A DNA stretch of 64,000 nt from Calvatia gigantea. Its lineage: Eukaryota > Basidiomycota > Agaricomycetes > Agaricales > Lycoperdaceae. The stretch is from assembly GCA_025093985.1 (NCBI GenBank), contig JACAAK010000014.1, positions 620,001 to 684,000 on the forward strand. The letters are read 5' to 3'. The translations under genes were made by a program, and so were the position numbers. Positions within the stretch are counted from its first letter, which is position 1. Every line of letters begins with the position of its first letter. Shown here in pieces: positions 1 to 26,040 of the stretch. The notes under the pieces are model-generated. The model was not told the DNA's origin. It searched no databases and saw only the letters and a list, made by a program, of their open reading frames with translations.

Positions 1-1444
1 ACCCCCCTGATCTATAGTCTCCCCACGCCGGAAGCGAACTCGACTTCCCCTTTCCACTAGGGTCACGTATACCGGCCAAACGTTGGGCCACCTCTTCCAT
101 GGTCAGCCTTCCGTCGGGATCCGAACTCCAGCAATCTTCAAAGAGCCGCCAAAGAGGTCCTGTTCCTGGCGGTTCGGGATCTGGATATTTGGGCGTCGTT
201 CCCTTACTATCATTACTATAGAGTAAGTCGGGTTCTCGAACTACACCATCGAATGGTCGCGTTCCAGTCCAGATCTATAAGTCGCTTGGTAAACATTAGG
301 TAGAGGGCCACATCCGAACATACCTCGTACGACGTAAGTGCAAAGGCACAGACGTCACTGGCCTTGTTTGGATGAATTCCATCTTCAATAACAAGTTCTA
401 CAGCCTGATAATGTCGTTCTTCCCGTGGTTTAAAAATAGATTTCTCTTCAGCTATCATGAGAATCTCAGGATAACCGAAACCGCTGATAACGGGATGCCC
501 GTCGTTGTGGATGAAAATTCGGGACTAAGCCAATTAAGAAGTTATCAGCCCTAGTGTGATGAGCCAAATAATCTGCGCACTGGTTCAAGGTCTCCATGTA
601 TGACTTGCATCCGATGGAGGTATCGCAAACCTTCAGAGACACCGTTTATCTGTACGAAAAAAGTTGATTCCTTCCAGAAACAGCCTGAAGACAGACGTAC
701 CATGGACAGTCTGGTGTTCACTTCGGCGCGTCTACCGTAGTGGGATAGGGTCCCGTTGAAGCAGTAGGAATAGACAATAGCAGGGCAATCAAGTTGCCAG
801 GATTCGAACGACAGGCCAAGAAACTCAAGGACATTGATGTGGTGTAATTGTTGCCAAGTTGGAGCTTTTTGAATCAAATGCTACATAATTTATTGGTTAG
901 GAGAAATCGCTGAAATCGCCGGTACAAACCTCTTTGACCTCGTCCTTTTGATCCACGTGCAGAACTTCGATGAAGACCTTCAGTTGTCCAGGTGACTTCC
1001 TGGTCTAGAATAAAAATTCTAGAGTACACTTGCCTCCATTTCAGTTTTACCAGTTTCTGCGAGATATCCAACGGAACAGTTTTCACGAAATGGAAAATCC
1101 TTTCGTTCATGAATGAGACCACTGAGGTTCTAGGACATTTCAGTTTTATAAGAAAACCAAACCATAAGCCGAGGAAGTATACCTTGTGCCGGGTCGGCCT
1201 TTGGGTAATGCCTCTCAAGCTCATGTCTACCCGCCTTGCCTTCTTTACTTCTTGTAGTTCAAGCCTTGCCTGGACTTGAGCCATTTCGACCTCAAAGACT
1301 TCCTGCCGTTCCGCTGACATTGTTGCGATATATCCAGCCATATCACCTGAGCAACCTGATAAAGTAAAAGAGAGTCACAAAACATAATACACGTACGTGA
1401 TACAAGTGTGAAAGGTATATGATCACCTAGAACCCCGCTGGAAC
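1..1444 (-). CDS. TKL-family pseudokinase, copy A (3' end beyond window)
   Basis: Kinase-like gene read leftward and cut by the window edge. An upstream exon at 1397-1444 encodes GVLGDHIPFTLVSR. The next begins at 1341 with the family signature MAGYIATMSAERQE, a charged helix. Later exons give an N-lobe, a W-QL-H-NVLEFLGLS stretch, HGDLEP, then the C-lobe block SDVCAFALTSYE and the terminal W-LFEDCW. Three core residues are gone: the beta-3 Lys is Glu (VFIEVL), the Lys after HGDL is Glu, and DFG is GFG (ISGFG). Open frame and splice sites are kept, so this looks like an expressed pseudokinase, not a dead gene. The second intron has a GC donor (AG|GCAAGT, at 1033). No clear ATG is seen upstream of 1444, so the start is unsettled. 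It is a close duplicate of copy B at 19.8-21.2 kb. Confidence 0.72.
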
Positions 1445-1590
1445 CTACGTGCACGCCAAGGGTTAGCGCAGGGTTAAGACCAGGTACATATGGAGGCTAG
1501 TCACGACTTGCCTGTGGGGACTTGACTCGATCCTTTATTCCCCTCTCTTAACGACTCGGAGCTTGCGGGACTAATGGGCTCGGAAGGGTA
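1..1590. repeat. Segmental duplication, unit 1 (matches 19745-21300)
   Basis: This block and 19745-21300 are the same unit in the same orientation: pseudokinase A or B, its upstream flank, and about 90 bp of the 3' end of the gene upstream. The copies stay alignable through introns and intergenic DNA, so the duplication is recent relative to the rest of the family. The unit ends inside the last coding stretch of the upstream gene in both places. Confidence 0.75.
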
Positions 1591-4500
1591 GTCTAACTTC
1601 TCATAAGACGAGTCAACAGTCGTCCTTTCTACCAGCCAACTCTGTGGTGGTTCGAAGGCTTGAACATCTCCGGTTTCAGCCATCGCGTGAAGGGTACCCG
1701 CCTCTTCAGGCTTGGGGAACGGGGTAATGTGGGTACTTTCCCATATTTGCGCCCCAGCAGTGGTTCCCTCCCCTGGATCATCCAGCTCACGGAGATCTCG
1801 GGAGCATTCATGCGCAGTGCAGCGCTCCGTTGGACTTTTCCCAAACCCCCAACAGCGGCGGAGTAATGGCCAAATCCACTCCACCGGACGGTAGACTTCG
1901 TGGTCGCTAAGTTTAGGCTCCTCTGACTCCTTGTTGAAAAATGTGGTAGAAATCTGGGCCACGTTCCAGTGGTGGTATGGCTTGATTCCACTCACAACCT
2001 TTACTGGAAGTTCAACTCGTGGCGATCGAACGACAGGACATGTGGCGTACGTGCAAAATGACCATCCCAAGGCTGTAAACGTCGGCATATTTTGTTAGAA
2101 GCTGGTTCCTGCCCTCTGGAGGAGCCAGCGCTCCAGAACTTTTCGGTGAGGGAGGCGAGTTTAGAAGCACCTCTGGTGCCGTATATCTGAATTCTGGTGT
2201 TCGGTGATAGATGAAGGAGCAGATAGGGATGCTTACCGGGGTGTCGTGTAAAAACTCCCTACGAGTTCTTCAATGCCCTGAATCCTTCTTTGTCCAAAGT
2301 CGGATATTTCGGGTATTGGTTGGCCTCGTTTGCCTATGTGTATTAGTACATTGTTCTGCTTGCTGTAGGCACGCTCCGTATTCCCAAGCAGCAGATAAAC
2401 GCACTGGTGTAAGGTCCCCATGTATAATGTCACAGGAATGCAGGTAGGCCAGACCACTGGCGATTCCGGTCGACTAGTGGTTGTTTGGTTTACAAGCCAA
2501 GACGATAAGAGACGGGACGTAACAACGTACTAATAGTCTACGGTTTGGATTGGATGTTTGGAGGAAATCCAGAATATTTCCAGCAGGTCTGAGGGGTGAT
2601 ACAAGTGCAGGTAAAGCCTCCGGTTTGTCGACATAAAGCCCGAAGAATGGAAGAACGTTGGGAAGAGGTTGGGCCCTTTGCCATGTATCGGCCTCTCTCT
2701 TAAGTCTCTACGAAAATCACACATCAGTATCGAAACTCCAATATGCCCGTGTCCCGCATACTCTTCTCAGGATATTCATCTCCTCGGGTTGGTTGTTCCT
2801 GCCTTGCCGAAAAATCTTGATCGCGAGCTGGAGAACGGGGAAAAGGTAAGGGGGGGCATTATAGGACAGGCGAATGGGTAAATGGAGGTACCCTTTGGGT
2901 TTGGCTCTTATCAACCCAACGGCCCAGCCAGATATCCGAAAAGGCGCCCGAATCGTATTGAGATTCTAATTTGACGTGTTGCTCCGTCAATAAAGTTGGA
3001 ATGCTTGCATTGGAGAGAGAGCCTGTAAAACGCCCTTCAATAATGCGCAACGTCACGGAGACATGGAGGAATTACCCGGCGTAAAGTATGTCGCGTTTGC
3101 TAATCCCTAAGATCAGAAACGACTTGTCAAACGAAAAACCAGAGAAGTGACTAATATGTCAACCCACGATGTTATCATCGTTCAGGTCCTCATCCATGAA
3201 GTGCACTTCCCGCCGATGAGCTTCCTTCCCTTTGACCTTGCCACTGTGAATGCTCAAGTTTGCTATTAAACCAAAGGGAACCTGGGCGTCCGGTAGAGAA
3301 GTCTGTATCTTCTCTGCCCCGCCAGATGCGCCTCCATCGTCAGAACCTTCTCCTTTGGGATCAACCTTTTCATGCGGGGGACCTCCCAATTCATTGTCGG
3401 GCCCGCCTCCCTCCTTTCTTCGCGGTCTCGTAGGTGCGATTGAGCCGACAGTGTTTCCAGCATCTGGTGGATGAGACTGTAGCCAATCTAACCAGAAATC
3501 CCGACCAGTAGGGTCCCAAGGAGGAGTTTCCCCAAGGTCAGGGGCTTTAGAGGGTGGGGCAATAAGGTTGGGGTCAGGAAGCTGGACTTTATCAGCGGTA
3601 AGTATTGTAACGTGAGCGAAATACATACTTGCTTGAGGAGCGATTCGATGAGAGCATCTTTCTGTCTGATTTGATCGAGTAAATACTCGCGTTTGCTAAA
3701 TGCAAGGCGTGTTAACAAGTGCCGGAACTGGAGAAAACGAAGACGAATTGATGGGGAGGAGAGAAAAGAGACCAGCACAGGGACGGTAAGTTTAAAGGTT
3801 GTGATGAGGAAATACTTCGGGAGCTCGTCCGGAATTCATAACGAGTCCGCACTCCGTGGCGGAACGCCAGGAAAGGAACAGGGATAATAAACGGGCGACA
3901 GAAAAATTATCAAGAATGAAAAACTTTGGCGGGACAAAAAGCGGATCCACCTACGGTGGCGCGCCTCTCGGCTTGCGACCTCCCACAACACAATCATGAC
4001 CACCGTTCTTACAACTTTTACACGTGTCTTCGCCGTCCGGAAAGTCGCACTTCATCTGTAAACTGAGATCAGTATGATCCCTCATGCGAAAGACGAGCTA
4101 GTAGGTGGGATCCACCACTGAGGGTTGAGTGATTATCCTATTGGAAAAACCCCAAGATTATCAAAGGGCGTAGCAGGCACAGGTCCGAGCGTCCAAGTGA
4201 AAGACGATGGGAGAACGCCAAGGACCATGGGGCTCACACGACCACCTGACTCATGGGAGTAACGATACCCCATGAAACGAGATGGGGACCCTCTGAGGGA
4301 ATTTTGAGCTGTCAATTGGAGGAAGGCACGAACCTTGAGTGTTTTGCAGCGGGTGCATGCGCCAGCTCTATGGTCACATGTACACAAGTGACAAGTGAGG
4401 TTGGTCATTAATCGGGCGCGCAACCAAGCCGTGGTCAACCGAAACAGGGCGTTTTTTGATTCGCGAAGGGGTGCAGCGAAGATGATGTTCAGGAAAGTAT

Positions 4501-5835
4501 TAGCAGCGGATAGACAGGTTTACAACGAGGCAGTGTGAGCAGGATTCCGGGACAACCCAATCCCGGGTCGATGATTTGGTCGAAGTGCAAGGTTACATGA
4601 CGGTAATGGGGCATGGAGAGTGTCAATGTGTGGTGTAAAAAAGGAGGGGGTTTGGAGATGGAGATATTGAGGACAGAGCAGTGGGTCAGCGAGGATATCA
4701 CGAGTATGAGAACATATGATAGCCACACGGATCGAACAAATTGTGTAATTGGAAATATTAGGCATGAAAGCGATTTGATGGGGGTAATGTGGGCATTTCA
4801 TCGAAAATTGTGGAGGGAACAAAAAAGCGCAACCCGTTCCCCGAATCATGGGATTTCATAGGAGCCGAATTTTGAGTGGCATGAAGGCGAGATGAGCGGG
4901 GGGTTTGGGGAAATTTTAAATTTCGTGGTTAGAGAAAGCCGATCTCCAAAGTCAACTACATACCGGCTTCGCTTTCCTCCACCCACATTTAGACCTGCAT
5001 CAATCCCCCCGCTGAACTCCTCAGTTTCCATCTGGACGTTGGTGTGTAATCGTTTGGGCTGCCCTAGTGCTGACGTTTGGGTATTTTCTGGTCAGCTTGA
5101 AGAACGAATACACGGACCACTAGGGTTGTGATGTTGATACGTGGACTGCTGCTGCTGCGCACCCCATTGCAACTGGGTAGATTCTGGAGTACTCGTGTAA
5201 GAGAGGATGGAGGGATCAGGGGAAGGGTAAGGGAAGGTTTGTCGGCGAGCGGGAGCGGAAAACGTCGACGCCAGCACAGAGTCCCCCGCATTAAGTTCCG
5301 AATCATAGTAAGGGCCGAACAGAGTACTTGGTTGTGGCTGCTGCTGATGCGGCTTCACCATCGACGGGGTGATGATGCCGGTGGACTCAAGGAATTCAGG
5401 AGAGAGATAGACTTGACGGAAGTTGGGGTCCAAGCTTACGTCTCGCCAATGCTGCTCGGTGTTGACGCGGGTCCATTGCTGATGCTGTTGATCCCCATGG
5501 CTGGCCTGCGGCTACAATAAACTATAGTGTCCGTAGAAACTCGTAATAGGCCTTACCGCAGACGACGAGACCGAGGGACCTGCAATCGGGTGTTGGACCG
5601 GTGCCGGGGTCGGAGCCTGGTCTGGCCGATCGCTGGGATGAAGGGAGTCTACGGGAGCTTGAATGCCCCGACCTATACCAGCCAATGGGTCAGTCGTTGA
5701 AGAGGCACGTGTGGGCTCTCTCGTCTACATACCCCCCTCTTGCTGGTGTGTGTGGGGCACTTCATGCTGAGTGTTAGGCTGCTGAGCATCCGAGGAGTTG
5801 CCTATGTCGGGCACGCCGGTCCCTGATGAGCGCAT
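1501..5835 (-). CDS. Zn2Cys6 regulator fused to a protein kinase domain
   Basis: Long multi-exon gene. Exons at 5835-5733, 5672-5557 and from 5511 encode a Gln/Pro/Ser-rich leader. The Zn cluster is split over exons 4367-4334 and 4055-3954: ACTRCKTLK then MKCDFPDGEDTCKSCK, spacing C-x2-C-x6-C-x8-C-x2-C-x6-C, ending HDCVVGGRKPRG. The next exon (about 3698-3627) gives the usual coil KREYLLDQIRQKDALIESLL. An acidic linker follows (QVPFGLIANLSI, then DDNIV|ANATYFTPG and LLTEQH) as in basidiomycete Zn2Cys6 factors. Where the fungal transcription-factor middle homology region should begin, the frame runs into a kinase: SGAFSDIWLGRW, LAIKIFR (beta-3 Lys), KREADTW (alpha-C Glu), GLAYLHS-DIIHGDLTP, NNVLI, ISDFG, ADVYSLGM and W-LLRRCW. 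All key catalytic residues are present, so an active nuclear kinase is likely. Joins keep phase except one uncertain junction near 5115. Last residues are ...QVPTGKS. Confidence 0.7.
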
Positions 5836-5869
5836 AGCGAAGTAGATCGGAGTTTAAGCTTTTAAGAGT

Positions 5870-6170
5870 GGGCGGGACAGTGGGTAATTAGAGAAGCTCT
5901 AGGGCGTCCGAAGCATCACACTGTACCGGTGTGGTCCGAAGTTGGCCTGCAACGTGCAACGATAACGACGGAGGGGACGTTGTTGAAGTTCTCAAAGCTG
6001 TAGGATGTGGTCCTTTAAGGAGGTCCTTATCTGTTCTCTTCCCCATAGGCTTTAAACTTTCCCACGAAACACCCGGTCCAGGGGAGGCACCAGTACTCAA
6101 GCTCTCAAGCGTTCCGAACGTTCATATCTCGTTCGGTCCGTCAAGTTCAATTACACCAGCTAGATAATGA
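5870..6170 (-). promoter_or_regulatory. 5' flank of the Zn2Cys6-kinase gene (repeated segment)
   Basis: The DNA upstream of the fusion gene start at 5835 is shared with 9890-10205 (upstream of the broken paralogue) and in part with 23380-23560. The tail with the CAATTACAC stretch is common to all three. This is probably the promoter and 5' UTR carried along with each duplicate. Weak open frames in it align poorly at protein level, so it is treated as non-coding. Confidence 0.4.
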
Positions 6171-6345: not shown

Positions 6346-7328
6346 AGTGATGATCCAATTCAGAAATACCCAAGATTACCATGGGGATTACCAGGGGGCA
6401 TAGTGGGCCCAAAGCCAAGCATCAAGCAAAAGGCAGTGGGAGCACGTCAGGGGTCATAAGATTCACACGGCTGCCTGACTCATGGAAGTAACGACGCCCC
6501 ATGAAACGAGGTGAGGACTCTCTGGGAAAACTTTGAGCCGCTAACCAGCGGTGGGTACGAACCTTGAGTTTTTTGTAGCGACGGCATGCGCCAATTTTGT
6601 GGTCACATGTATGTACGCAAGCAATACGTAAGGTTGGGCCATTAATCAGGTGCAGAACCGGGTCGCGTTAATCAGAACAGTGTGTTTTGATGTTCGTGAA
6701 GAGGTGCAACAAAGATAACGTCCGGGAAAGTAATGGTATCGGACGGACAGGTTTATAACAAGGCAGCGTGAGCAGGAATCCGGGACGACCCAATCCCAGG
6801 TCGATGGTCCGGTCAAAATACGAGGTTACATGACGGCAATGGGGCATGGAGAGCTCAATGTGTGGTGTAGAAATAAGAGGGAGTTAGCAGATGGAGAAAT
6901 TGAGGGCGGGGCAATAGGATCACCGAGGGTACCACGAGTATGTAGAGGAACACACAATAGCCACACGGATCGAACAAATTGTGCGATTGGGAATATGAGG
7001 CATGAAAGCGTTCCGAAGGGGGGAATGTGGGCATTTCGTCGAAAACAGGTCAACGCACCATTGCGGAAGGACAAAAGAGTGGCGCCCGTTCCCCAAATTG
7101 TCGGATTTCGTAGGAGTCAAACCAGTGGCATGAATGTCAACAAGGCGAGATGTGCAGGGGATTTAGGTAGATTTGAAATTTCGTGGTTAGAGAAAGCCGA
7201 TCCCCCAAGTTAACTACGCACCGCCCTCGTTCTCCTTCACCCACACTTAGGCCTGCCAATCCAACATCAATACACCCGCTGGACGCACCGGCCTCCGAAG
7301 GCTTAACTGCAGTATCTGAATGATTTGG

Positions 7329-7343
7329 GGAGGCCATGTCAGT
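7329..7343 (+). repeat. 15-bp target-site duplication, left
   Basis: GGAGGCCATGTCAGT occurs here and again at 9062-9076, exactly flanking the inserted element. Continuous sequence across one copy restores the alignment with the uninterrupted paralogue near 5040-5070. Confidence 0.8.
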
Positions 7344-7708
7344 TTGTCCGGAGGGACGTAAAACACTCCGCAGGGATAGCGTTAGTCAGTGCAGCTGTGG
7401 TCAGTTGACTACTAGGGGTGCAAACTGATCCACCTAGGAGGTGTGGACCTCTGTTGGTTAACATAAGTTGTAGCAGTCCGGCAATGCGTTCGGAGCAAAG
7501 AGCTAACACTCGCTGCTGCTTCAGTCGTCAAGCTTCCTGAGTCACAGCTGGCGCATTTTCTCCAATATTCCATGATCTCTGTCCACTGTGCGACGAGGTC
7601 TATGGTCAACCCGGAAGGGTGCGAAAGCATAGGAGACGATAAGAGAGGGATATTGTTCAAATAACAAGCCGACCGTAATGGACAGGCCACCCTCCACCCC
7701 AAGGGGGT

Positions 7709-8417
7709 GTGGAGACTGCACGTCGGCTGCCTTCGGAACAGCACCCAACGAGCATCTCACACTAATCAGTCCGCCCTCCGAAGATTTCGTCACCCCGACC
7801 ATTCATCGATCCGTCGTCAATCCGCTTGTTCCTCGCTCACTACACAAACCGTCCATTTCGCCTGCCATACGTCGTGTTTTAGACCACTACCCGCTTTAAT
7901 AAAATTTCACCGCACATCTTTCTCGTTATTGACATTTTTTTCTAATTCAGACTCTTCGCCTCCGTAGTTGCACATTCACTCGTTGTGTTTCAAAATTTCA
8001 ACATTTTACCACAGTTCCCTAGCCTAACCTTCATTATACTAACTCAACACATTTGCTATACAGATTCAGTATTTGTAGGTAACCGTAGAAATTGAACACC
8101 GGACAAGTTGTCTACAGTATAAATACAGTCGAGCCAGTAGAGGCTCAACACCTAGTAATTGGATACCCAATTTTCACTCTCGAAGTCTCGCTCTGAATTG
8201 TCTCAGCTCTGTCTCTCGTCGTCGGTCGCTCTCTTGTTGACTCCCGGTCCACGCTTGCTCTGAACTTTTGTCTTCAACAACGCCGTCGCTCTCGCCCCTC
8301 GTTCTCTTGTGTTCCCGGCCTCTGTCTCTCTTTTCCTGGACCCGGTTTCGAAGCCTTGTGACTGACGGACACAGTCACACCCTATTTTCGTTGAACCGCC
8401 GCCTCATCTCTTCAGGG
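7709..8417 (+). repeat. Dispersed repeat R1, copy 1
   Basis: Aligns along its length with 12999-13765. Shared marks are CACGTCGGCTGCCTTCGGAA, the downstream TATAAATAC-like box (8119 here) and a C/T-rich segment with CTCTTGTGTTCCCGGCCTCT. The TATA-like box followed by a pyrimidine-rich tract looks like a promoter plus 5' UTR. In copy 2 the repeat leads straight into a GNAT acetyltransferase. Confidence 0.55.
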
Positions 8418-8682
8418 GTCGTTAGTAGGGATAACTCTAACTCCAGTAACAGTCTGCCCTGAAAAAGGGTTTAGAACTTTCTGTTATAACCACACTGGTA
8501 GCAGCCCCTGCGAGACATAGAGCCTTAACACTTATTACGCGGATCCATACAAGTGCGAAAGTACTCGAATGAAGCGGGTGTAAGGTAACGGGAGGGCGTG
8601 GCAGCTGGACCATAGCAGATTCTACAGAGAATGTACTATCTGGCTTGAGAGGACAAAATCCTATGTCAGTGCCAATAGGCGC

Positions 8683-9010
8683 TTAGGTTGTATCCACAGC
8701 GGATGAGAGGTTGTAAGCCTCATCTAGGGGTATTATGCCTTCAAGGGGCCCCGTAGCTGGGCATTGCCTCATGGCTATGTGTGGGAGCCAGTCCCACACT
8801 TCATTCTTTGACAGTATTCCTTTCTCACCTACTGTACTGGGGGTTGTCTGGTACCCGTAGTACCTGCTCTGTAGTTTAAATCCGGGGAATGGGGTGAGCT
8901 TTGGGGTGTACCCTGGCAACTCCTCTGCAATCTGGTAGGACTCAGATGGGGGGCGTCCTTCCCTCGCGATGACACCGGCTCTTATTATAGGGACTGTAGG
9001 GCAGTAAACA
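8683..9010 (-). other. Open frame of unknown origin inside the retroposon
   Basis: The minus strand is open over about 109 codons and reads like protein (blocks VYCPTVPIIRAGVIAREGRP and KNEVWDWLPHIAMRQCPATG) with no ATG upstream. It runs against the poly(A) orientation of the element. It may be a captured gene fragment or part of an unrelated element; I do not recognise it. Confidence 0.3.
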
Positions 9011-9061
9011 CGTTATGTAGTGACATAGGCCTTATAGAAACGTTGATCTAAAAAAAAAAAA

Positions 9062-9076
9062 GGAGGCCATGTCAGT
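9062..9076 (+). repeat. 15-bp target-site duplication, right
   Basis: Second copy of the direct repeat described at 7329-7343, directly after the A tract at 9050-9061. Confidence 0.8.
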
Positions 9077-9879
9077 GCGTGGTGGTCCGAGCCGCCCCAG
9101 TGCTGGCATTGGGAAATTCTGGTCGCCTGATGAGAAATTGCCCTACCTGATGCATTTGGGTCACTAGGATTTGGTTGAACATATAGGGGCCGCTCCCCCC
9201 ATTGCAGATGGCGATATACCCCAGCATCCTCGGGGGAATGGAAAGAGGAGGGCCCAATGGAGGCTTCCGAGAGAAAGAAGGCTGAGGAAAATACCGACTC
9301 CGGCATAGAGCCCGCCGTATTGGATCCTGAATCAATAAACGAGTCGGAAAGGTACCTTGTCGCGACTGCTGCCGATGTCGGGCCGGCCCCGGAAAGGTGA
9401 CGACGTCAGCAATGGACTCGGAGGAAGAATGGGCTTGACAGAGGTTGGAGTATGAACTCACGTCCTGCACATATTCTTGCTGCTCGATGTTGGCGTCGAT
9501 TCGTTGCTGAAGTTGTTGGCTCCCAGCACTGGCCTGAGGCTGCAGTGAACCATGTTGCTCGGAGGAAGTCACAGTATTTCCAATGACGGACGATGAAACC
9601 GAGGAACTCGTAATCGAATGTTGGGCCGGTGCCGAGGTCGAGAGCTGTTCAAGCTGATCGTTGGGATCAAGGGAGTCTGCAGGAGCTTGAATGCTCTGAC
9701 CTATATTAGCCAAACAAGCCAGCCAATTGAACGATCGTGCGGTGGGCTCTCTCTGTCAACATACCCCCTTGCTGGTGTGTGTGGGGTGCTTCATGCTGAG
9801 TACTAGGGTGCTGAGTGTCCGTAGAGCTGCCCGATCTGGGCACGTCGGCCTCCGATGAATACATAGCGAAGCAGATCAC

Positions 9880-10205
9880 AATCTGAGTGGGTGCCCAGTG
9901 AGGAATTAAAGTACCTCTAAGGCATCCAAAACATTAGACCGTACTGGTGTGGACGAGGAAGAGGTCTTGGAGGAAAACTTGAAAACTTGGACCCAGCGTG
10001 CAACGATGTCAACAATGTCGAACATCTCACAGCTGTTTATGGGTCTCTGAAGCGAGAGAGGCTCCTCTTCTCCATCGGCTCTTGAACTTTCCCACGCGAA
10101 CAGAGCGAGAAACACCGAAGAAACACCGTTCTTCCGAAAAAAAGTTTCCCTCAAGATCCCAAGAGCCGTCGATACCTAAGTAAATCAATTTCAATTACAC
10201 TAGTG
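9880..10205. repeat. 5' flank of the broken fusion paralogue
   Basis: Homologous to 5870-6170, with a shared TGGTGTGG stretch and the AAACTTTCCCACG and CAATTACAC blocks. It ends near 10205, where similarity to the other copies stops. Confidence 0.45.
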
Positions 10206-11092
10206 GTAAAAGATAACAAACTATCGCTAGCCCAGAACCCTCATCCTAACGGCTGATGTGAGAGGATAATGAACGTCGTAGATCGAAGGATCTAAAATAA
10301 GAAGTAAATCTCAGTCTTCGTAGAGAACGAACTGAGGTGTACATCCTACTTGGTAGCAAAAATAACCTGCGATTATGTAAGGAAAGCGATGCCGCAAACA
10401 TAGTCAACGGAAATGGTAAACAATCAGTCAATTTTCCGAACTTAGTTCATAGGGCCATTTCTACAACAACGGCGAGGTAGCGGGAAGAGCTTGGAGCGAT
10501 TCAGCAGCGCGGTGTTGTCCACGAGTACGGGGCTGCACTTTATCTGATGACATCCTATTGTCAATATGCGATGCCATCGGTTACAACGCGTGGATACGCA
10601 GGAAAAACGTAGAGGAAGAAAAGGATGAAGAATGTCGCGGTGGACGTACAAATGAATAGGGACAGGACAGAGTGTCCCAATGGACATAAAATCAATGGGG
10701 TCGCGATGGACTGTGTGATAAAGTCTCGATGGACAACGGTGGTTTGATGTTGTGTCGCAATGGATCACAAAGGTGAATATATGCAGAAGTTGTACAAGGC
10801 GTGGTACTCGCCAGTCGATATATGCGACGTATATACAGGACGTGAAGCCAGACAGAGTATATGCGCGAAACTAAAACGCGTAATGGAAAAATCACAGTCG
10901 AGAAGACCCAAAAAAAAGTGGAAGCCCGTAGGCTCACCGATATCACGTATAAGGTTACTCACGTATTCACATGACACTGGGTGACCTCGGCGGTCTATTC
11001 GAGACAGATACGCGTATCGTAGTAATACAAGAGAAAAGGGAAAGGTGGAAAGTCGAAGAAGGATGTAAGTCTGGCGGAAATGGATATATACC
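10206..11092. other. Gene-free stretch before the fold-back element
   Basis: No gene is supported. Minus-strand frames contain loose repeats of HRD/HCD-like words caused by imperfect TCGC(A/G)ATGGA repeats (10560-10770). No splice-consistent gene could be built. Confidence 0.5.
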
Positions 11093-11093
11093 G

Positions 11094-11823
11094 CCTAAGA
11101 ATACCGAATAACCGGTCTTATTAGAGGGGTATTACCATAGCTGGTACCCCTCTAATTAGAGCGGTTTAGCCCTTTTCCCTCACAGGACAGAAATTGGGCC
11201 CAACTTAGTACGAAAATCTTGTACGAGAAAGTACTCCACTGAGCGGCTACCAGCTAAGCTCCCGGATGCCGTTGTCCATGACACCTAGGCTCCTCCCTCA
11301 TTGTTTCCCGCCATCACCCCGCCCTTCCCACACCTCCCCTGCTCACTGGGCCCCGTCGTTGCCGCCGTTATTGCTGCCACTGCCACCCCACCAGTGTCCC
11401 CACCACCATCACTGCCCAATCACGACGGCACATCCCAATCCGGCTCACGGATCATTTGTGGATGCCCCTGCCCAATTTTCCCGCGCCCTTGTCAACACTG
11501 TCTTCAACGATGAGCTCGAGTATCCCTACCAGATCCCACTGATTTGGTGCAATTAATTTGATGTATTAGATGTATATAGTATGGGGTGTGGGATGTACAA
11601 TAAAATAATTGATTAATCAGTGAAAATGAAGTGTTTTAAGTGCAGAAGTGTCATCACAAGAACCTTCTGCACAGGAATACACCGCCGTGTTCTCACTGGA
11701 TACTTGCCTGATTCTGGTAGCTATTTGTATAGGCTATCAGGATATACCAGACCGCCTTCCATGGGATAGGGTAGAGGAGTATAATGGCCATGATAGTGAT
11801 GAAGCAACCTTTCTCAGTATTTC
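11094..11823 (+). repeat. Inverted-repeat arm, left
   Basis: Reverse complement of 12161-12890. It starts CCTAAGAATACCGAATAACC and carries a nested small palindrome near the tip (TAGAGGGGTA...TACCCCTCTA). Confidence 0.85.
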
Positions 11824-12160
11824 ACTTATATCTTCTTGTATGTTTTATCTTTTTTGATTATAAATACCTTTCCAGAAAGACGGGTTAGGTAGGAGTAAAA
11901 TGCAATAAGTCTCATAGAGATAGATCGAGTTTCTGAGGAGTTATAGATGAAATAAGACAGGATTTCATGACAGATCAATGTGAGGATCATAACACACCTT
12001 CATCTTTGATGTTCACGTCACCTTCAGCACTATTTTCCCCATATCTTTTCAATGCCTTGGTATATCTACAAACGAATTTTTGTGCTCAATAGGAGCTGTT
12101 TAACTGTATTATAATACAAAGGGAGGTGTAGAGAATAAATTTATTTGTAAAGGTATGACG

Positions 12161-12890
12161 GAAATACTGAGAAAGGTTGCTTCATCACTATCATGGCCAT
12201 TATACTCCTCTACCCTATCCCATGGAAGGCGGTCTGGTATATCCTGATAGCCTATACAAATAGCTACCAGAATCAGGCAAGTATCCAGTGAGAACACGGC
12301 GGTGTATTCCTGTGCAGAAGGTTCTTGTGATGACACTTCTGCACTTAAAACACTTCATTTTCACTGATTAATCAATTATTTTATTGTACATCCCACACCC
12401 CATACTATATACATCTAATACATCAAATTAATTGCACCAAATCAGTGGGATCTGGTAGGGATACTCGAGCTCATCGTTGAAGACAGTGTTGACAAGGGCG
12501 CGGGAAAATTGGGCAGGGGCATCCACAAATGATCCGTGAGCCGGATTGGGATGTGCCGTCGTGATTGGGCAGTGATGGTGGTGGGGACACTGGTGGGGTG
12601 GCAGTGGCAGCAATAACGGCGGCAACGACGGGGCCCAGTGAGCAGGGGAGGTGTGGGAAGGGCGGGGTGATGGCGGGAAACAATGAGGGAGGAGCCTAGG
12701 TGTCATGGACAACGGCATCCGGGAGCTTAGCTGGTAGCCGCTCAGTGGAGTACTTTCTCGTACAAGATTTTCGTACTAAGTTGGGCCCAATTTCTGTCCT
12801 GTGAGGGAAAAGGGCTAAACCGCTCTAATTAGAGGGGTACCAGCTATGGTAATACCCCTCTAATAAGACCGGTTATTCGGTATTCTTAGG
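12161..12890 (-). repeat. Inverted-repeat arm, right
   Basis: Mirror copy of 11094-11823. Similarity ends abruptly at the CAGTATTTC boundary on the spacer side in both arms. Confidence 0.85.
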
Positions 12891-12998
12891 TGATATATAC
12901 ACTATCGTTAGTGTTTGTCAACGTTAATCCAGACTTACACATTTGGCCATAAACAGGTCCGATGTGGATAACGAATTGAACTGCGCTGAGTGATATCA

Positions 12999-19744: not shown

Positions 19745-21300
19745 GGATAGCTAGGGATATTTGTAGGACTTCCCCTTTCCACTAGGGTCATGTATACTGG
19801 CCAAGCGTTGGACCACCCCTTCCATGGTCAACCTTCCATCGGGATCTGGGCCCCAGCAATCTTCAAAGAGCCGCCAAAGGGGTCCCGTTCCTGGTGGTTG
19901 GGGGTCTGGATACTTGGGTATCGTTCCGTTACTATCATTGCTATAGAGCAAGTCGAGATCTCGAACTACGTCGTCGAATGGTCGCAACCCAGTCCAAATC
20001 TATAAGTTGCTTAATAAATATCAATTCATGGGGGCACATCCAAGCGTACCTCATACGACGTCAGCGCAAAGGCACAGACATCACTGGACTTGTTCGGATG
20101 AATGCCATCTTCAATAACGAGCTCTACAGCCTGATAACGACGTTCTTCCCGTGGTTTATATATAAATTTATCTTCAGCTATTGTGAGAACCTCAGGATAA
20201 CCAAAACCGCTGATAGCGGGATGCCCGTCGTTGTGGATGAAAATTCGGGACTAAGTCAATCAAGGGAGTCGTTAGCCTCAGCGTGATGAACCGAATAATC
20301 TGCGCACTGGTTCAAGGTCTCCATGTATGACTTGCATCCGATGGAGGTATCGCAAACCCTCAGAGACACCTTTTATCTGTGCGAAGAATATTGATCCCTT
20401 CCAGAAACGGCTGAAGACCGACATACCATGAACAGTCTGGTGTTCACCTCGGCGCGCTTACCATAGTGAGATAAGGTTCCATTGAAGCAGTAGGGATAGA
20501 TGATAGCAGGGCAACCAAACTGCCAGGAATCGAATGATAGGCCAAGGAATTCCAGGATATTGGCATGGTACAATTGCTGCCAGGTCGGAGTTTTTTGAAG
20601 CAAATACTACGGAATTGATTGATCGGGTGAAATAGCCCGAAATCACCAGGACAAACCTCTTTGACCTCGTCCTTTTGATCCACGTGCAGAACTTCGATGA
20701 AGACCTTAGTGTTTCAGGTGACTTCCTGGCCCGGAATAATTCTAGAGTACACTTGCCTTGATTCTTGTTCTGCCATCTTCGGTGAGATATCCAATGAAAC
20801 AGTTTTCACGGAATGGAAAATCTTTCCGTTCGTGAATGCGACCGCTGAGATCCTGAAACATTTCAAGTTTTGTAAGAAAACCCAATATCAGAAGTCAAGG
20901 AGGCATACTTTGTACTGGATCAGGTTTTGGGAAATGCGCTTCAGGCCCACTCCTGCATGCCTCGCCTTCCTTATTTCTTGTAATTCAAGCCTTGCCTGGA
21001 CTTGAGCCATTTCAACCTCAAAGACTTCCTGCCGTTCCGCTGACATTGTGGCGATACATCCAGCCATATCACCTGAGCAACCTGATAAAATAAAGGAGAA
21101 TTACGGAGCACAAAACACGCACGCGACCCAAGTGCAAAAGGTATACAATCGCCGAGCACTCCACTGGAACCCATGTGCACTGCGTTAAGGGTTCGTGCAG
21201 GTTAGAACTAACATTATATGGGGACCAGTCACTACTTGCCTGCGGGAAGTTGACGCGACTCCTTACTCCCATCCATTAATGGGTCGAAGCTTTTGGGATT
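19745..21300. repeat. Segmental duplication, unit 2 (matches 1-1590)
   Basis: Same orientation and content as unit 1: pseudokinase B, its upstream DNA, and the terminal codons of the upstream gene. Here that gene is the intact REG1-like gene, so this is probably the parental context. Confidence 0.75.
19751..21174 (-). CDS. TKL-family pseudokinase, copy B
   Basis: Near duplicate of copy A and complete here. The ATG at 21174 opens MGSSGVLGDCIPFALGSR; the next exon begins DMAGCIATMSAERQE. Next come an N-lobe exon (DLSGRIHERKDFPF) ending at a GC donor (20756), the exon with VFIEVLHVDQKDEVKE, a GLSFDSW-PAI block, HGDLEP, FIHNDGHPAISGFGYPE, SSDVCAFALTSYE, and the terminal LWRLFEDCWGPDPDGRL. The beta-3 Lys is Glu, the catalytic-loop Asn is lost (SRIFI in place of xNILI) and DFG is GFG, so phosphotransfer is not expected. 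Frame and splice sites are intact. The stop near 19751 is set by the last kinase frame; a continued frame downstream could extend it. Confidence 0.75.
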
Positions 21301-23014
21301 GACGGATTCGGAAGGAGGGACTGGCGCTTTAACAGACAAATCAGCGGCCGCCATCCCAATATCGCCAACCCTGGGGGAGTCTGGGGGCCAGGACTTCTTG
21401 GCTTTGGTGTACGGGGCTAACTTGCGCCGTCGTCGGCGAAAAACACCGCCGTCCAACGACGCGGGAGCAGAGGTTGTCGTTGTCGCTGACGGTAACAATG
21501 AAACAGATTTTGACCGTGGACGTGCCCTTTCCTCCGAGCTCGGGGTCAATGGGCTAGCACGCCAACGGGTAAAAGGCCGACTTTTGATTGCACTGTCGTC
21601 TGAGTCGGAATCGCTGTGCATAATGTTCCCATCGGGATGACGACGCCGAGGATGTGCACCATTCTGAGTGGCTAACCAGAGAGGGTCACTTCCGTCAAGC
21701 AAATTATATTTTCGATTCTCTTCGTAACTAAGAGAAAAATGGATATAGTTGGTCAGGACTTTAAACAATGAAAAGAGCGCTGCATACCTATCATCGTCAT
21801 CCCAATTCTCATCATAGCTCTCGTCGTCATCTTCATCCCACCCTTCATTATAGCTCTCGTCATCATCACCCGTATTCTCAGTATAGCTCTCACTATCATC
21901 TTCGTCCAAGTTCTCAGTAGAATATTCATCGTCATCCCCGTCCCACTTCTCAGTATAGCGCTCATCGTCATCATCCCATTTCTCATTGAAGCTCTTGTCG
22001 CCATCACTATCTTCTTCTTCGCCATCAGGCCCATACGGACCCGGATAGCCACTGAGGCCCAACTTTCCTTTCTTTCTTGACCGGGGGTATTTGTCTATAG
22101 GTTCCCAATGCTCGACGAAAGCATTGAAACCGACGCGCTTCTTCGTTGATGTCTGTTTGCTGCTTCCACTTGGACTTGAGGCCGAGTCCTGTGGCAAGGA
22201 ATTTCGGACTGCTCCTGAGGTGCGTACCGTCGACGTTGAGTGGCATGAGGATAATTGGGTGGGCGTAGTCTCGGGTGGTACGCGGGGAGGCGAGTCCTTG
22301 CGGAAAATATACGACAGACCCCAGCGTGTAATATAACTATCGCTGTTCGCACGTACAAGGGCAGGTCGTTTGTGGCCTTCGGTGGTTTTGGGGACCTCCT
22401 CTCCGGAGGCAGAGTTTGAATGAGTATGTTTTGGCTCGGCCTCGGCCTCGGTTAATCTCAATATAGGGGGTATTTCGGAAGTGAAAAGTTCGTGGATGCC
22501 ACGGCGCTTGAGAATGGGTTTTATGTAAGGGGTTCGGGGACGATGTGTTCCAGACGGAAGGGCAGAGTGGAGATCAAGTTGGTTATGGGCGGAGGCGGGA
22601 TTGCCACTATCCATTGTGCCTTGCACTATCCGCGGTGGAGAGGTCCATTCGGGCGCTGTGTGCAACGGACCATAGAGCCAGGTCACGTCAGCCTCTTTCA
22701 ACCTGAGAAATGATACATGATATGAGCAGGTAGGTCTGGGAAAAGAGTGGATCTGACCAGTTCAGGGTCTCTGGGGCGATGGCCTTGAGTTTGTTGCGCT
22801 GCTTCCACCATATCCGCCAGCTGGCATTTTCGAGACGAACGCCATTGAAGGTTTCGTTCTTCTGATGGGTCATAATTCTCCAGGACCACCAGAGATCCTC
22901 CTCTTGCCAGTCATGGGAAAGGTAGTCGACCTGGCCGAGGGGCATGATTGTGATATTATGATCCGGTATCGCATTTGTGTTGGCCGGCACGAGGGCCGGA
23001 GGGTAATTGGCCAT
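21232..23014 (-). CDS. REG1/REG2-like PP1 regulatory protein
   Basis: Three exons, 23014-22758, 22702-21788 and 21727-21232, join in phase to 555 residues. The N-terminal part carries the family block: VDYLSHDW, DLWWSWR, GVRLENASWRIWWKQRNKL, PETLNWLKEADVTWLYGPLH, a strong match to REG1 (DUF1752) proteins that target protein phosphatase 1 in glucose repression. About residues 235-250 hold KKRVGFNAFVEHWEPID, an RVxF-type PP1-docking site in the position of the yeast one. An acidic repeat region follows (21790-22010), with about seven imperfect copies of DDD-SYTEN-W. The tail is Ser/Pro/Arg rich. The last 28 residues resemble the end of the Zn2Cys6-kinase protein at 1501. Confidence 0.82.
21790..22010 (-). 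repeat. Acidic in-frame repeats in the REG1-like gene
   Basis: Imperfect 30-45-bp units encode Asp/Glu-rich repeats, each with an aromatic pair (for example DDDESYNEGWDED). They lie between the PP1-docking site and the second intron. Such tracts are prone to length change. Confidence 0.6.
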
Positions 23015-23579: not shown

Positions 23580-26040
23580 TCAACTATTATCGCCTTTGTG
23601 TGGCAACACATAATAGACGGTGTGGTTTTGAAGGAACGTATCTACCAGTATTCCACACGATCTCGCGTCCGAGGGTCCCAGAATGATCGCGGCGGAGAAA
23701 CCATTCTTGTGCAACATAAGATCATTGGAAAGTTCAGAAAGCGACCCTGGTTGTTCCCTGGTTGAGAAGAGTCTACTCGGACCAACTCGATCCTTTCAGT
23801 CCCAGTTATCACTTACTTCGCAAGGATGAAGAGGCAGAAGACACATACTAATGTTTGAGTGAAAGCCTGATCGGTATACGCTCTGAACGTTGTGAGATGA
23901 CCGCCATCGTCCTGGCGTACATCTTCGATCTTGAAAGATATCGCTCTTTCATCGATCCAGCTGTACTGTGGATCAGAAACATCGAGGTCCCGCAGAAGAT
24001 TATGGTTCCGAAGGAGAGTGTTCCCCTAAAAAAAGCCCGTCGATAAATTATTTTCGGCATGCCAAGGAATTAACCCACCTCTCGTGCAACCCAGTCTAAG
24101 AATGCGAGAAATCGGTGAGGAACGTCGGGGAAAACATAACCATCTACGAGCTTATGAAGGTGAATTTTCTGTATGATCTTGATAAGTTCGGCGGGGTTTT
24201 TGTCGTCAGATAGAGCTTCATAGTGAATCCCGAATATGCACAGGTGAGAGGGACAGGGGAGGATGTGGTGCAGGAAAACCCGCCGGGCGTTCTCCCAAAT
24301 GTTAATCCTGAACCTCTTGGCCTGGTCAGCTGTCGAAGTCCAAGCGAGTCGTATTGCCGTTAGATGAGGGACAGCTACATGGAATAAGTGAGCAAGCGTA
24401 ATATTACAAAACCGCTAGCGACGCACGTAGAGACTGGATTTCTTGCAATACACGAAAGTGGCAATGCCACAAGTCCGCCACAATTTCCTTCGTGTCAATC
24501 CAAAAATTCTCCGAATATTCACGGTTGGCGAGAAAACGAGCAAAGGAATCATGAAAGAATCGTATCGGTGATGTAGTAGCTTCTTCGAGTTTTGGAATCT
24601 CCATCAATGAATGCAACCGAGACAAACATGCATACGCGACGTTCTTCTTGATATCCAGAATATTGCATAATACCCAGAATGGAGTAGAATCCCGCGTCCA
24701 AACCCCAAAACCACGCGGCAATAGAAGGAATCCCAATATCCTTCTGGCCGTACGGTAATGATCTGTAGGCACAGACTGCAAAATTTGCGTGTAGATACGA
24801 TGGATGTCGGCCAGAGGGTCCTTATGAAGGATGGTAGCAGATGATTTGTGGTCGATCACCGAAAGAACAGTCTCGAATTGGGTCATGGGATCGGCGATCT
24901 CACGGTCGTCAACGAAATATGCAATTGCGGATGCAAGGATGAAAAGGCCCGATACGGTACGAAGGAGAACGCTGAAATCGTTCTCCTCGGGCCACGGTAA
25001 CGGCTCAATCGTATCGTAGTCCTCTTGGATATCGTCGAACCGGCTTCGCAAAAAGTACTGAACATCTTTGCGAGCGTCATCGGATTCAACAGGGATCAGG
25101 AGCTTCGCAACGTGGTCTTGAAGGTGTTGATACTTCTTGAACGTACGGACCAAATGTTGTTCGGGGCGGCTTGTGATGATCCAGACCAATGGTGCGGAAG
25201 GGTGATTCTGTGTGAACTCGATGATAAGTCGTATGATCCTTTCCTGAGACTCTGAACTCTTCCCACAATACTGATCGAGTCCATCTATCAAGATCGGTAG
25301 CGGGTGCAAGGTCTGCAGCACCCGCCTTCGACCAATGGGTTCGACAATCAATGTCTCGAATTGCTGTTCCATACTTTGTTCCACAAGCTTCGGGTCATGA
25401 TCGATTTGTTCTTTCACATAAGCCAAGTAGGACGAATCCTTAGTAGCCAGCCGATAAGAGATGGTAATCCACACCCGTGAATCATCATCGTGAGTTGTAG
25501 GGGCCACCTTTGGGGACTGGGAGAGGTGGACGACAGGTGAGGGAGGGAAAAATAATGTAGCGCCCAATCGCGCGTTCCTTGCCTCTGTCTCTGCTAGAGT
25601 TTGTGCGATAGCAGATTTCCCAACGCCCGGCGGTCCACAAATCCAGAGAAACTTTTTCTTTGGATGTGGATTACATAGAAGATCACGAACTTCCGCAATC
25701 ATGTCCGATCGAGTGCCATCATAACAGCGTGGAGGGGGGTCACGGGCAGAAGAGTTGTGCTCAACACCAGACATTGCATGCGCTGCCAACCATTTCAGGG
25801 CTGGGTTATCTGGTCATTTACTGGCGAAGTAGTTAGGGTGGGCCTAAACTCACCTGAGGATCCTGGATGGCCAACCTCGATTCGTTCAACCATGAATGGG
25901 TTGTGAATGGAAAAGTTGCGGGCATACTTGAACATTGACCCCTTGGCAGGTCCACCTTCGGTTTGATAGGTCTTATGTTTTAATGCAGGGCAACCCAGTA
26001 GCTGGGCCGGACTCACTTGAACTTGTATCTGTCTCTCCAT
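23580..26040 (-). CDS. NACHT NTPase (NLR-like), NACHT 1
   Basis: Five exons, 26040-25854, 25800-24427, 24374-24079, 24025-23849 and 23792-23580, join in phase to 748 residues. After a 60-residue leader comes ALKWLAAHAMSGVEHNSSAR, the usual entry to fungal NACHT domains, then Walker A GPPGVGKSAIAQ (about 117-128), Walker B LPILIDGLDQ (about 230-239) and the sensor WIITSRPE (about 269-276). The helical part (RRILGFLLLP, FFHDSFARFL) is typical of Agaricomycete NACHT proteins. There are no WD40, ankyrin or TPR repeats. The C-terminus is instead a module shared by all copies here (AYTD, PSRLFSTRE, YYVLP). A signalling STAND ATPase is expected; no N-terminal effector domain is recognised. It lies downstream of pseudokinase C on the same strand. 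Confidence 0.85.

What the first reader, a model, noticed from the sequence alone, without database searches (positions are those of the whole stretch)
1501..5835. Zn2Cys6 regulator whose transcription-factor middle region is replaced by an active-looking kinase
Seen: a complete Zn2Cys6 cluster, coil and linker splice in phase, and exactly after LLTEQH, where such factors begin their middle homology region, the frame continues as a kinase with Lys, Glu, HGD, Asn and DFG all present. Inference: exon shuffling made a DNA-bound kinase that could phosphorylate chromatin or transcription proteins at its target genes. A partial paralogue at 6.4-9.9 kb shows the 5' half existed before the local duplication.
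Basis: partly seen in the sequence, partly recalled or inferred. Interest (0 to 1): 0.85.

Follow-up and report, generated by a model that had tools for sequence, protein, structure and literature searches.

The report
Mushroom priB regulator fused to kinase
In one gilled-mushroom genome the DNA-binding half of a developmental gene regulator (priB) is joined in frame to an almost complete protein kinase, so it may encode a kinase that sits on DNA, though it has not been shown that the gene is expressed.

Summary
On the minus strand, exons 5-16 (4367-1501) splice in phase into a Zn2Cys6 cluster, coil and linker continuing as a kinase (TF half Zn_clus 22.7 bits, cut-off 21; kinase half Pkinase 1.3e-25). 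The TF half is priB, a mushroom developmental regulator. The same contig holds an apparently complete priB and a stand-alone relative of the kinase. Eleven introns match these parents. The switch lies at 2976|2975, inside an exon, after LLTEQH: in-frame breakage and joining, not intron-mediated exon shuffling. None of 120 listed priB relatives (131 hits) carries a kinase domain. The kinase frame has no ATG between the junction and its first upstream stop. Zn cluster and coil are constrained, the first linker half is not. Weak points: two in-frame stops in the 5' exons (5512-5514, 5092-5094) need introns priB lacks; the last kinase intron needs an AAG acceptor; no RNA. A downstream ATG (5030) would still give the whole Zn-cluster kinase. 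Best reading: a dimeric, DNA-tethered kinase derived from priB, expression and activity untested.

The parts
5673..5835 (-). exon 1 (5835-5733, ATG MRSSGTG...) and intron 1 (5732-5673)
   Evidence: GT/AG, CTGAC branch-like site 16 nt from the acceptor; region conserved in priB and in the partial copy
5557..5672 (-). exon 2 of the low-complexity N-terminal region
5512..5556 (-). doubtful 45-nt intron 2; if not spliced its end is an in-frame TAG (5512-5514), where the partial copy has CAG and priB CAA
   Evidence: no branch-like site by the pattern (two introns shared with the parents, 3075-3023 and 2050-1999, also lack one, so this is weak)
5163..5511 (-). exon 3, Q/S/P-rich
5088..5162 (-). doubtful 75-nt intron 3 needed to remove in-frame TGA 5092-5094; the aligned stretch of priB lies in an open frame
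4964..5087 (-). exon 4; contains in-frame ATG at 5030 (METEEF...) that would start a 636-aa protein with the complete Zn cluster
4334..4367 (-). exon 5, first half of the Zn2Cys6 cluster (RAGACTRCKTLK)
   Evidence: 34 nt and same splice sites in genome priB L038:4363-4396
3955..4055 (-). exon 6, second half of the Zn2Cys6 cluster (MKCDFPDGEDTCKSCKNGGHDCVVGGRKPRGAP)
   Evidence: Zn_clus 22.7 bits on the TF half against cut-off 21, 20.6 on the whole model; 6 of 6 Cys as in priB
3629..3695 (-). exon 7, dimerisation coil (KREYLLDQIRQKDALIESLLKQ)
   Evidence: coil plus the stretch before it keep 22 of 24 columns conserved in >=90% of priB rows
3168..3581 (-). exon 8, linker
   Evidence: 414 nt, priB 420 nt, one 2-codon gap
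3076..3106 (-). exon 9, GLANATYFTPG (priB GVANETYFMPG)
   Evidence: 31 nt in both genes
2976..3022 (-). TF-derived part of exon 10, ending LLTEQH
   Evidence: identity to priB 5, 8, 11 of 15 nt in the last three bins, then 3 of 15
2892..2975 (-). kinase-derived part of exon 10 (VKLESQYDSGAFSDIWLGRWVDKSQTQR), glycine-rich loop; fusion point 2976|2975
   Evidence: identity to stand-alone kinase L037 10, 9, 13, 9, 12 of 15 nt after the point; 84 nt in both
2762..2827 (-). exon 11, beta3 Lys (LAIKIF)
   Evidence: 66 nt in both
2531..2707 (-). exon 12, alphaC Glu (READTW)
   Evidence: 177 nt in both
2405..2473 (-). exon 13, catalytic loop IIHGDLTP
   Evidence: 69 nt in both
2237..2355 (-). exon 14, catalytic Asn and DFG
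   Evidence: 119 nt in both
2051..2186 (-). exon 15, APE and DVYSLG
   Evidence: 136 nt in both
1999..2050 (-). last kinase intron; must end at AAG (1999), since the CAG five bases earlier would be followed by TAA; the stand-alone kinase has CAG here
1501..1998 (-). exon 16, end of the kinase (ERCTAHE) and a C-terminal tail of about 90 residues, stop TGA 1503-1501
   Evidence: tail longer than in the stand-alone kinases aligned
6386..9952 (-). partial, decayed copy of the 5' half (ends within the intron after the first Zn exon; second Cys of the cluster is Tyr)
   Evidence: 75% and 73% DNA identity to 4156-5006 and 5450-5934; for the Tyr; lacks the same N-terminal stretch
7344..9061 (+). poly(A)-tailed insertion in the partial copy with a 15-nt target-site duplication (7329-7343, 9062-9076) and a nested LTR-like repeat near 7698-8418

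Best explanation
The locus is a fusion gene. A duplicate of priB, lacking about 550 nt of the N-terminal coding region that priB has today, broke inside the exon that precedes its middle homology region and was joined in frame to a small stand-alone kinase gene just inside that kinase's start (shown by sequence). The predicted product keeps the Zn2Cys6 cluster and coil and swaps the regulatory and activation part of priB for a complete kinase. The inferred mechanism: it binds priB-type sites as a homodimer, or as a heterodimer with true priB through the conserved coil; two kinase domains are thereby brought together, can activate each other, and phosphorylate priB or nearby transcription and chromatin proteins, while the protein competes with priB for sites. 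Shown: architecture, junction, parents, open frame from the Zn cluster to the kinase end under the splice model, uneven constraint. Inferred: expression, start codon, DNA binding, kinase activity, targets.
For: Pfam: Zn_clus 22.7 bits on the TF half (20.6 on the whole model, cut-off 21), Pkinase and PK_Tyr_Ser-Thr far over cut-off. Parents in the same genome: priB pieces at C6:1,088-1,094 kb covering P0001 residues 1-722 with gaps and a 343-aa kinase at C6:523.67-525.04 kb. 5 + 6 introns at the same positions and phases. Identity switch at 2976|2975; a 102-nt junction probe matches only itself in the genome. 523 codons from Zn cluster to kinase end without a stop under the splice model; neutral P(no stop) falls to 0.05 at about 0.054 substitutions per site, simulated 0.08 at 0.05 and 0.007 at 0.1. 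Pairwise dN/dS by ML: kinase 0.24/0.68 over 291 codons without gaps, TF half 0.30/0.85 over 232 codons, Zn cluster plus coil 0.15/0.69. Zn cluster and coil keep 32 of 36 highly conserved priB columns, the linker block HNPYL..SP 5 of 14 (Fisher p 3.5e-4, a contrast chosen after seeing the counts). No ATG in the kinase frame between the junction and its first upstream stop.
Against: No transcript. Two in-frame stops in the 5' exons need introns that priB does not need. The last kinase intron depends on an AAG acceptor; with the CAG that corresponds to the paralogue's acceptor the kinase would stop after DVYSLGMVILH. The TF half evolves much faster than true priB (terminal branch 1.47 against 0.11), so constraint is weak and may predate the fusion. 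The missing N-terminal stretch includes priB's basic KKRKRGKR. No orthologous fusion was found in another species, so nothing shows that it has persisted.
Confidence: 0.47

Rival explanations
1. A young, non-functional chimera: two genes were joined by chance, the product is not made or has no role, and the locus has begun to decay.
For: In-frame TAG 5512-5514 and TGA 5092-5094 in the 5' exons; the last kinase intron has lost the paralogue-type CAG acceptor in frame; relaxed TF half; the neighbouring 5' copy is decayed; no second species; low pairwise dN/dS could have been built up before the fusion.
Against: Under the splice model no stop or frameshift in 523 codons and 11 parental introns kept; constraint is concentrated in the Zn cluster, coil and kinase. 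These allow decay only if it is recent (about 0.05 neutral substitutions per site).
Confidence: 0.36
2. Two separate transcripts: a truncated priB-like protein and an independent kinase that happen to lie head to tail.
For: Without splicing of the 3167-3107 or 3075-3023 intron the TF frame ends at once.
Against: Kinase frame has no ATG upstream of the glycine loop before a stop at 3074, no AATAAA/ATTAAA/AAATAA in 3168-3023; the stand-alone kinases carry their own ATG 11 (P0135) or 26 (C6:524 kb) codons before the homologous point, and that part is replaced by TF sequence here.
Confidence: 0.07
3. The useful product is a Zn-cluster plus coil protein without kinase, from retention of the intron at 3167-3107 or 3075-3023, acting as a competitor of priB; the kinase is a passenger.
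For: Zn cluster and coil are among the best kept parts of the TF half; retained introns give immediate stops.
Against: Kinase half shows dN/dS 0.24/0.68 and a 291-codon alignment without gaps, and its chimera branch is only 1.6 times that of the stand-alone paralogue (0.38 against 0.24); not what a passenger would show unless the fusion is recent.
Confidence: 0.08
4. Assembly artefact joining two loci.
For: Both parents lie on the same contig.
Against: The coding parts differ from each parent by about 27-30% of bases and the junction probe finds only itself; a misjoin of these loci would reproduce their sequence.
Confidence: 0.02

Closest known systems
priB / PRIB, Zn2Cys6 developmental regulator of mushrooms (Lentinula edodes and other Agaricomycetes)
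   Same: Zn cluster, coil, linker and intron positions; sources name P0017, P0019, P0021 and P0026 priB. PMC3953639 (passages seen) describes L. edodes PRIB as a Zn2Cys6 factor most transcribed in primordia and early fruiting.
   Different: The Fungal_trans region (PF04082, in 118 of the 120 listed relatives) is absent and replaced by a kinase; about 550 nt of the N-terminal coding region of the genome's priB has no counterpart.
Small stand-alone Agaricomycete kinases (C6:523.67-525.04 kb; P0135; Leucocoprinus P0136-P0139)
   Same: Catalytic residues, HGDLTP-type loop (also in P0135, P0139, P0140), six intron positions of the C6:524 kb gene.
   Different: These six are 313-343 aa with kinase domains only; here the start is replaced by a DNA-binding region and there is a C-terminal tail.
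FslK, fungi-specific kinases related to tyrosine kinases (PMC3937382, abstract and passages seen)
   Same: Both Pkinase and PK_Tyr_Ser-Thr profiles match; the paper describes expansion in Agaricomycetes.
   Different: Membership not tested by tree; the paper reports that only 16 of 241 FslK members have additional domains.
Arabidopsis WRKY19/MEKK4, a WRKY-NLR-kinase fusion (PMC4759884 and PMC9528084, passages seen)
   Same: A transcription-factor DNA-binding domain and a kinase in one polypeptide; the present gene also lies some 20 kb from two NPHP3_N/NACHT-type ATPase frames.
   Different: Unrelated domains, an NLR as well, a plant.

Membership tests
Zn2Cys6 DNA-binding domain | Six Cys with the binuclear-cluster spacing | tested here: met
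   Cys at residues 5, 8, 15, 24, 27, 34 in both chimera and priB; PF00172 22.7 bits on the TF half, 20.6 on the whole model, cut-off 21; the genome's priB scores 17.7 and P0017 18.8
Zn2Cys6 DNA-binding domain | Sequence-specific DNA binding | not testable with these tools
   needs an assay
priB transcription factor | priB-type Zn cluster, coil and linker with homologous introns | tested here: met
   the linker block HNPYL..SP is mostly lost (5 of 14 conserved columns)
priB transcription factor | Fungal_trans / middle homology region (PF04082) | tested here: not met
   absent from the model and a whole-genome search with P0001 puts no piece beyond residue 204 near 622 kb. So it is not filed as a priB factor.
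Protein kinase | Pkinase domain over cut-off | tested here: met
   PF00069 90.7 bits (cut-off 31.7), PF07714 82.3 bits (cut-off 23.1)
Protein kinase | Catalytic Lys, Glu, Asp (HxD), Asn, Asp (DFG), APE | tested here: met
   all present in the spliced model and aligned with stand-alone relatives; the Thr in HGDLTP is shared by P0135, P0139, P0140
Protein kinase | Phosphotransfer activity | not testable with these tools
   needs an assay
FslK kinases | Placement in the FslK clade | not tested
   no FslK reference set was loaded

The most novel reading that the evidence does not exclude
A promoter-tethered kinase made by giving a kinase the DNA address of a developmental regulator: a priB-derived dimer that lets a kinase act only at priB target genes or on priB itself. 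Given NACHT-type ATPase frames and kinase relatives nearby, it could also be an integrated-decoy type immune protein in which the priB half is bait.
Probability: 0.3. Interest if true: 0.78.

Novelty: new variant of a known kind. Interest (0 to 1): 0.55.

Why it matters
Enzymes that modify chromatin or transcription proteins are usually recruited to genes by separate factors. A natural protein that carries the DNA address and the kinase in one chain would be a direct way to test what local phosphorylation does at a developmental target set, and it shows how the middle region of a Zn2Cys6 factor can be replaced in one step. Even if it is not functional, it is a clean, two-parent record of a mid-exon, frame-preserving gene fusion with relatives of both parents still on the same contig.

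Tried and rejected
First gene models had wrong splice choices (15-nt intron 1, a 3-residue loss in alphaC, one extra Gln in the catalytic loop); comparison with the kinase paralogue and P0135 led to the model. Searches used the earlier variant of the kinase part and a variant still lacking the three alphaC residues; Pfam was repeated on the corrected halves.

I first read LLTEQH as kinase-native, because stand-alone kinases have RLSDKD or KLSEKD there (note); the priB exon and base-by-base comparison reversed that. I suspected loss of a catalytic Lys (HGDLTP instead of HGDLKP); three relatives have the same Thr, so it is not a defect of the chimera.

Assembly misjoin and two-gene readings were tested and disfavoured. 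A second Zn_clus-kinase gene in this genome: none of the 19 Zn_clus places lies within 10 kb of the 150 PK_Tyr_Ser-Thr rows listed, compared by eye; weak, since 138 of 353 kinase candidates were scored and the chimera's own split exons appear in neither list. PRIB binding consensus (recalled from memory, from no call): 4 matches with up to 3 mismatches in the window, 5.67 expected by chance, none between 5836 and 6386 upstream of the gene. Literature: seven searches with terms on Zn2Cys6/Zn_clus with kinase, kinome, FunK1, TF-kinase fusion and WRKY19 and two on priB; no title or abstract listed names a Zn-cluster kinase fusion. Apart from passages of seven papers the texts were not read, and only open-access papers are held. 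The TF relatives' search listed 120 of 131 hits; 11 were not shown.

Full report
What is there. The window is C6:620001-684000 of an unnamed 45.95-Mb genome in 77 contigs. Over its N-terminal half its priB is 83% identical to that of Macrolepiota fuliginosa and 79% to that of a Leucoagaricus, so it is probably a member of the Agaricaceae. On the minus strand a gene runs from 5835 to 1501. Reading all frames and comparing with relatives gives sixteen exons: an N-terminal low-complexity region, a Zn2Cys6 cluster split over two exons, a coil, a linker, the short exon GLANATYFTPG, and then an exon that starts SLSNASIPTLLTEQH and continues VKLESQYDSGAFSDIWLGRW as a kinase. Pfam finds Zn_clus (22.7 bits on the TF half, 20.6 on the whole model, cut-off 21; the genome's true priB itself scores 17.7) and Pkinase / PK_Tyr_Ser-Thr (1.3e-25 and 4.4e-23 on the kinase half).

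The two parents. The TF half is priB: 131 proteins match it, 120 are listed, several are named priB by their sources, 118 of the 120 carry the Fungal_trans domain and none carries a kinase domain. The genome has an apparently complete priB at C6:1,088-1,094 kb (I did not build its full model) and no middle-region fragment near the chimera. The kinase half belongs to a family of small stand-alone kinases: a 343-aa gene with seven exons in phase lies at C6:523.67-525.04 kb and P0135 (342 aa) is 61.5% identical. Tree of ten kinases: chimera, this paralogue and P0135 form one group with support 100/100; end branches 0.38, 0.24 and 0.19.

The junction. Exon lengths from the first Zn exon to the junction are 34, 101, 67, 414, 31, 47 in the chimera and 34, 101, 67, 420, 31, 47 in priB; from the junction on they are 84, 66, 177, 69, 119, 136 in both the chimera and the stand-alone kinase. 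Eleven introns are therefore shared in position and phase; the acceptors of exons 12 and 14 were picked with the relatives in view. In 15-nt bins the chimera matches priB at 9, 5, 8 and 11 positions up to base 2976 and at 3, 3, 7, 5, 4 after it; it matches the kinase gene at 3, 3, 5, 7 before and 10, 9, 13, 9, 12 after. The last nine TF-side bases, GAGCAACAC, are identical to priB. Both parents have a similar short stretch here (LIEQH against LSDKD or LSEKD), so the point is certain to within a few codons. The break is inside an exon of both genes. This is frame-keeping joining at DNA level with introns retained, not exon shuffling through introns and not retroposition.

One gene or two. From the junction the kinase frame runs upstream for 32 codons without ATG to a TAA at 3074, and no poly(A) signal of three common forms lies in 3168-3023. 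Stand-alone kinases have their ATG 11 (P0135) or 26 (C6:524 kb) codons before the homologous position; the chimera has TF sequence there. A complete kinase can therefore only be made through the TF exons or an unknown exon.

Is it maintained? From the Zn cluster to the end of the kinase there are 523 codons with no stop under the splice model; simulation gives P(no stop) of 0.08 at 0.05 neutral substitutions per site, 0.007 at 0.1 and 0 of 600 at 0.2. Pairwise dN and dS (ML) are 0.24 and 0.68 for the kinase half and 0.30 and 0.85 for the TF half; counting by NG86 gives 0.22/0.92 and 0.26/1.09. Within the TF half the Zn cluster and coil (68 codons) give 0.15 and 0.69, the first half of the linker 0.62 and 0.83 and the rest 0.25 and 1.37 (ML). 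Against 120 priB rows, columns conserved in at least 90% are kept in 10 of 12 (Zn cluster; the genome's priB keeps 11), 22 of 24 (coil and the stretch before it), 5 of 14 (the HNPYL..SP linker block), 4 of 6, 7 of 7, 6 of 7 and 1 of 6 (last block; that alignment is poor there, the pairwise one has 6 of 15 identical). So the DNA-binding and dimerisation parts are held while the linker block is not; the contrast was chosen after seeing the counts. The TF half as a whole has evolved fast (branch 1.47 against 0.11 for priB), and selection before the fusion cannot be separated from selection after it without an orthologue.

What speaks against it. The 5' exons are the weak spot. Relative to priB and to the partial copy, the chimera has TAG at 5512-5514 (CAG and CAA in the relatives), and it has TGA at 5092-5094. 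Each can be removed by a GT-AG intron of 45 or 75 nt, but priB is open through the aligned stretches. Neither proposed intron has a branch-like site by the pattern, but two introns shared with the parents lack one too, so that counts little. A second weak spot is the last kinase intron: the stand-alone gene uses CAG before GTCGTC, whereas in the chimera the CAG at that place is followed by TAA and only an AAG five bases later keeps the frame. A shorter protein from ATG 5030 would avoid the two 5' stops and still hold the entire Zn cluster, coil, linker and kinase (636 aa), but no promoter evidence supports it. About 550 nt of priB's N-terminal coding region, with KKRKRGKR, has no counterpart in the chimera. 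No RNA was available.

The partial copy. 6386-7262 and 9478-9952 match 4156-5006 and 5450-5934 at 75% and 73%. It ends in the intron after the first Zn exon, has Tyr for the second cluster Cys and carries a 1.7-kb insertion with a 15-nt duplication that itself holds an LTR-like repeat listed in 40 other places. Without the insertion, about 470 nt separate its two matching blocks against 443 in the chimera (coordinates), and the frame continues into GCIDVGLAG as in the chimera, so it lacks the same stretch and is a duplicate of the chimera's 5' end or of its precursor.

Mechanism. Most likely, if expressed, the protein forms dimers through the coil, binds priB-type sites and presents two kinase domains there; dimerisation is a common way to activate kinases (established knowledge). 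It could phosphorylate priB, with which it may heterodimerise, or nearby proteins, and it lacks the part of priB that normally regulates transcription, so it should also compete with priB. None of these steps was tested.

Known or new. Passages of PMC3953639 describe PRIB as a primordium-abundant Zn2Cys6 factor. PMC3937382 (abstract and passages) describes an Agaricomycete-expanded kinase lineage in which 16 of 241 members have additional domains. WRKY19/MEKK4 of Arabidopsis (passages of PMC4759884 and PMC9528084) is a known TF-domain and kinase fusion that is also an NLR. In the searches listed in Tried and rejected I saw no Zn2Cys6-kinase fusion named, and no priB relative listed has a kinase domain. 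I call it a new variant of a known kind: a domain fusion with a pairing not met in these searches.

Noticed in passing
window 7344-9061, TSD 7329-7343 and 9062-9076: Poly(A)-tailed insertion with a perfect 15-nt target-site duplication inside the partial priB copy; it contains a nested LTR-like repeat (about query bases 355-1075) with 40 other places listed at 81-95% identity, several of them in pairs about 7.2 kb apart.
   Followed up: partly
window 42-1587 and 19767-21315: 1.55-kb segment repeated at 82.6% identity, reaching into the 3' end of the chimera; it also matches C6:617.7-619.2 kb in pieces of 81-86%. It holds a kinase-like stretch on the minus strand (581-877).
   Followed up: partly
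window 11085-11834 and 12150-12899: 750-bp inverted repeat at 99.2% identity with a 315-bp spacer.
   Followed up: no
window 24407-25813 (-) and 28643-29746 (+): Two NPHP3_N/NACHT-type ATPase frames, with kinase-like stretches between them at 26745-27012; looks like a fungal NLR and kinase neighbourhood.
   Followed up: partly
window 33764-34588 (+): Open frame holding MTGYIATLSAERQE with a long helical-looking part followed by a kinase-like start (SGGPSSDFWRGIWLEQEKVALKSIRRV); the frame at 874-1374 (-) holds a similar MAGYIATMSAERQE. No Pfam match in the first frame.
   Followed up: no
C77:2,208.9-2,211.4 kb (partly in L039): A second priB-like Zn-cluster factor with middle region in this genome (56% over the Zn cluster to the chimera, 49% over part of the middle region to P0001).
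   Followed up: no
C6:1,088-1,094 kb (L038): The genome's priB has a very long open N-terminal frame (533 codons stop to stop) with a Q-rich part and KKRKRGKR, missing from both window copies.
   Followed up: partly
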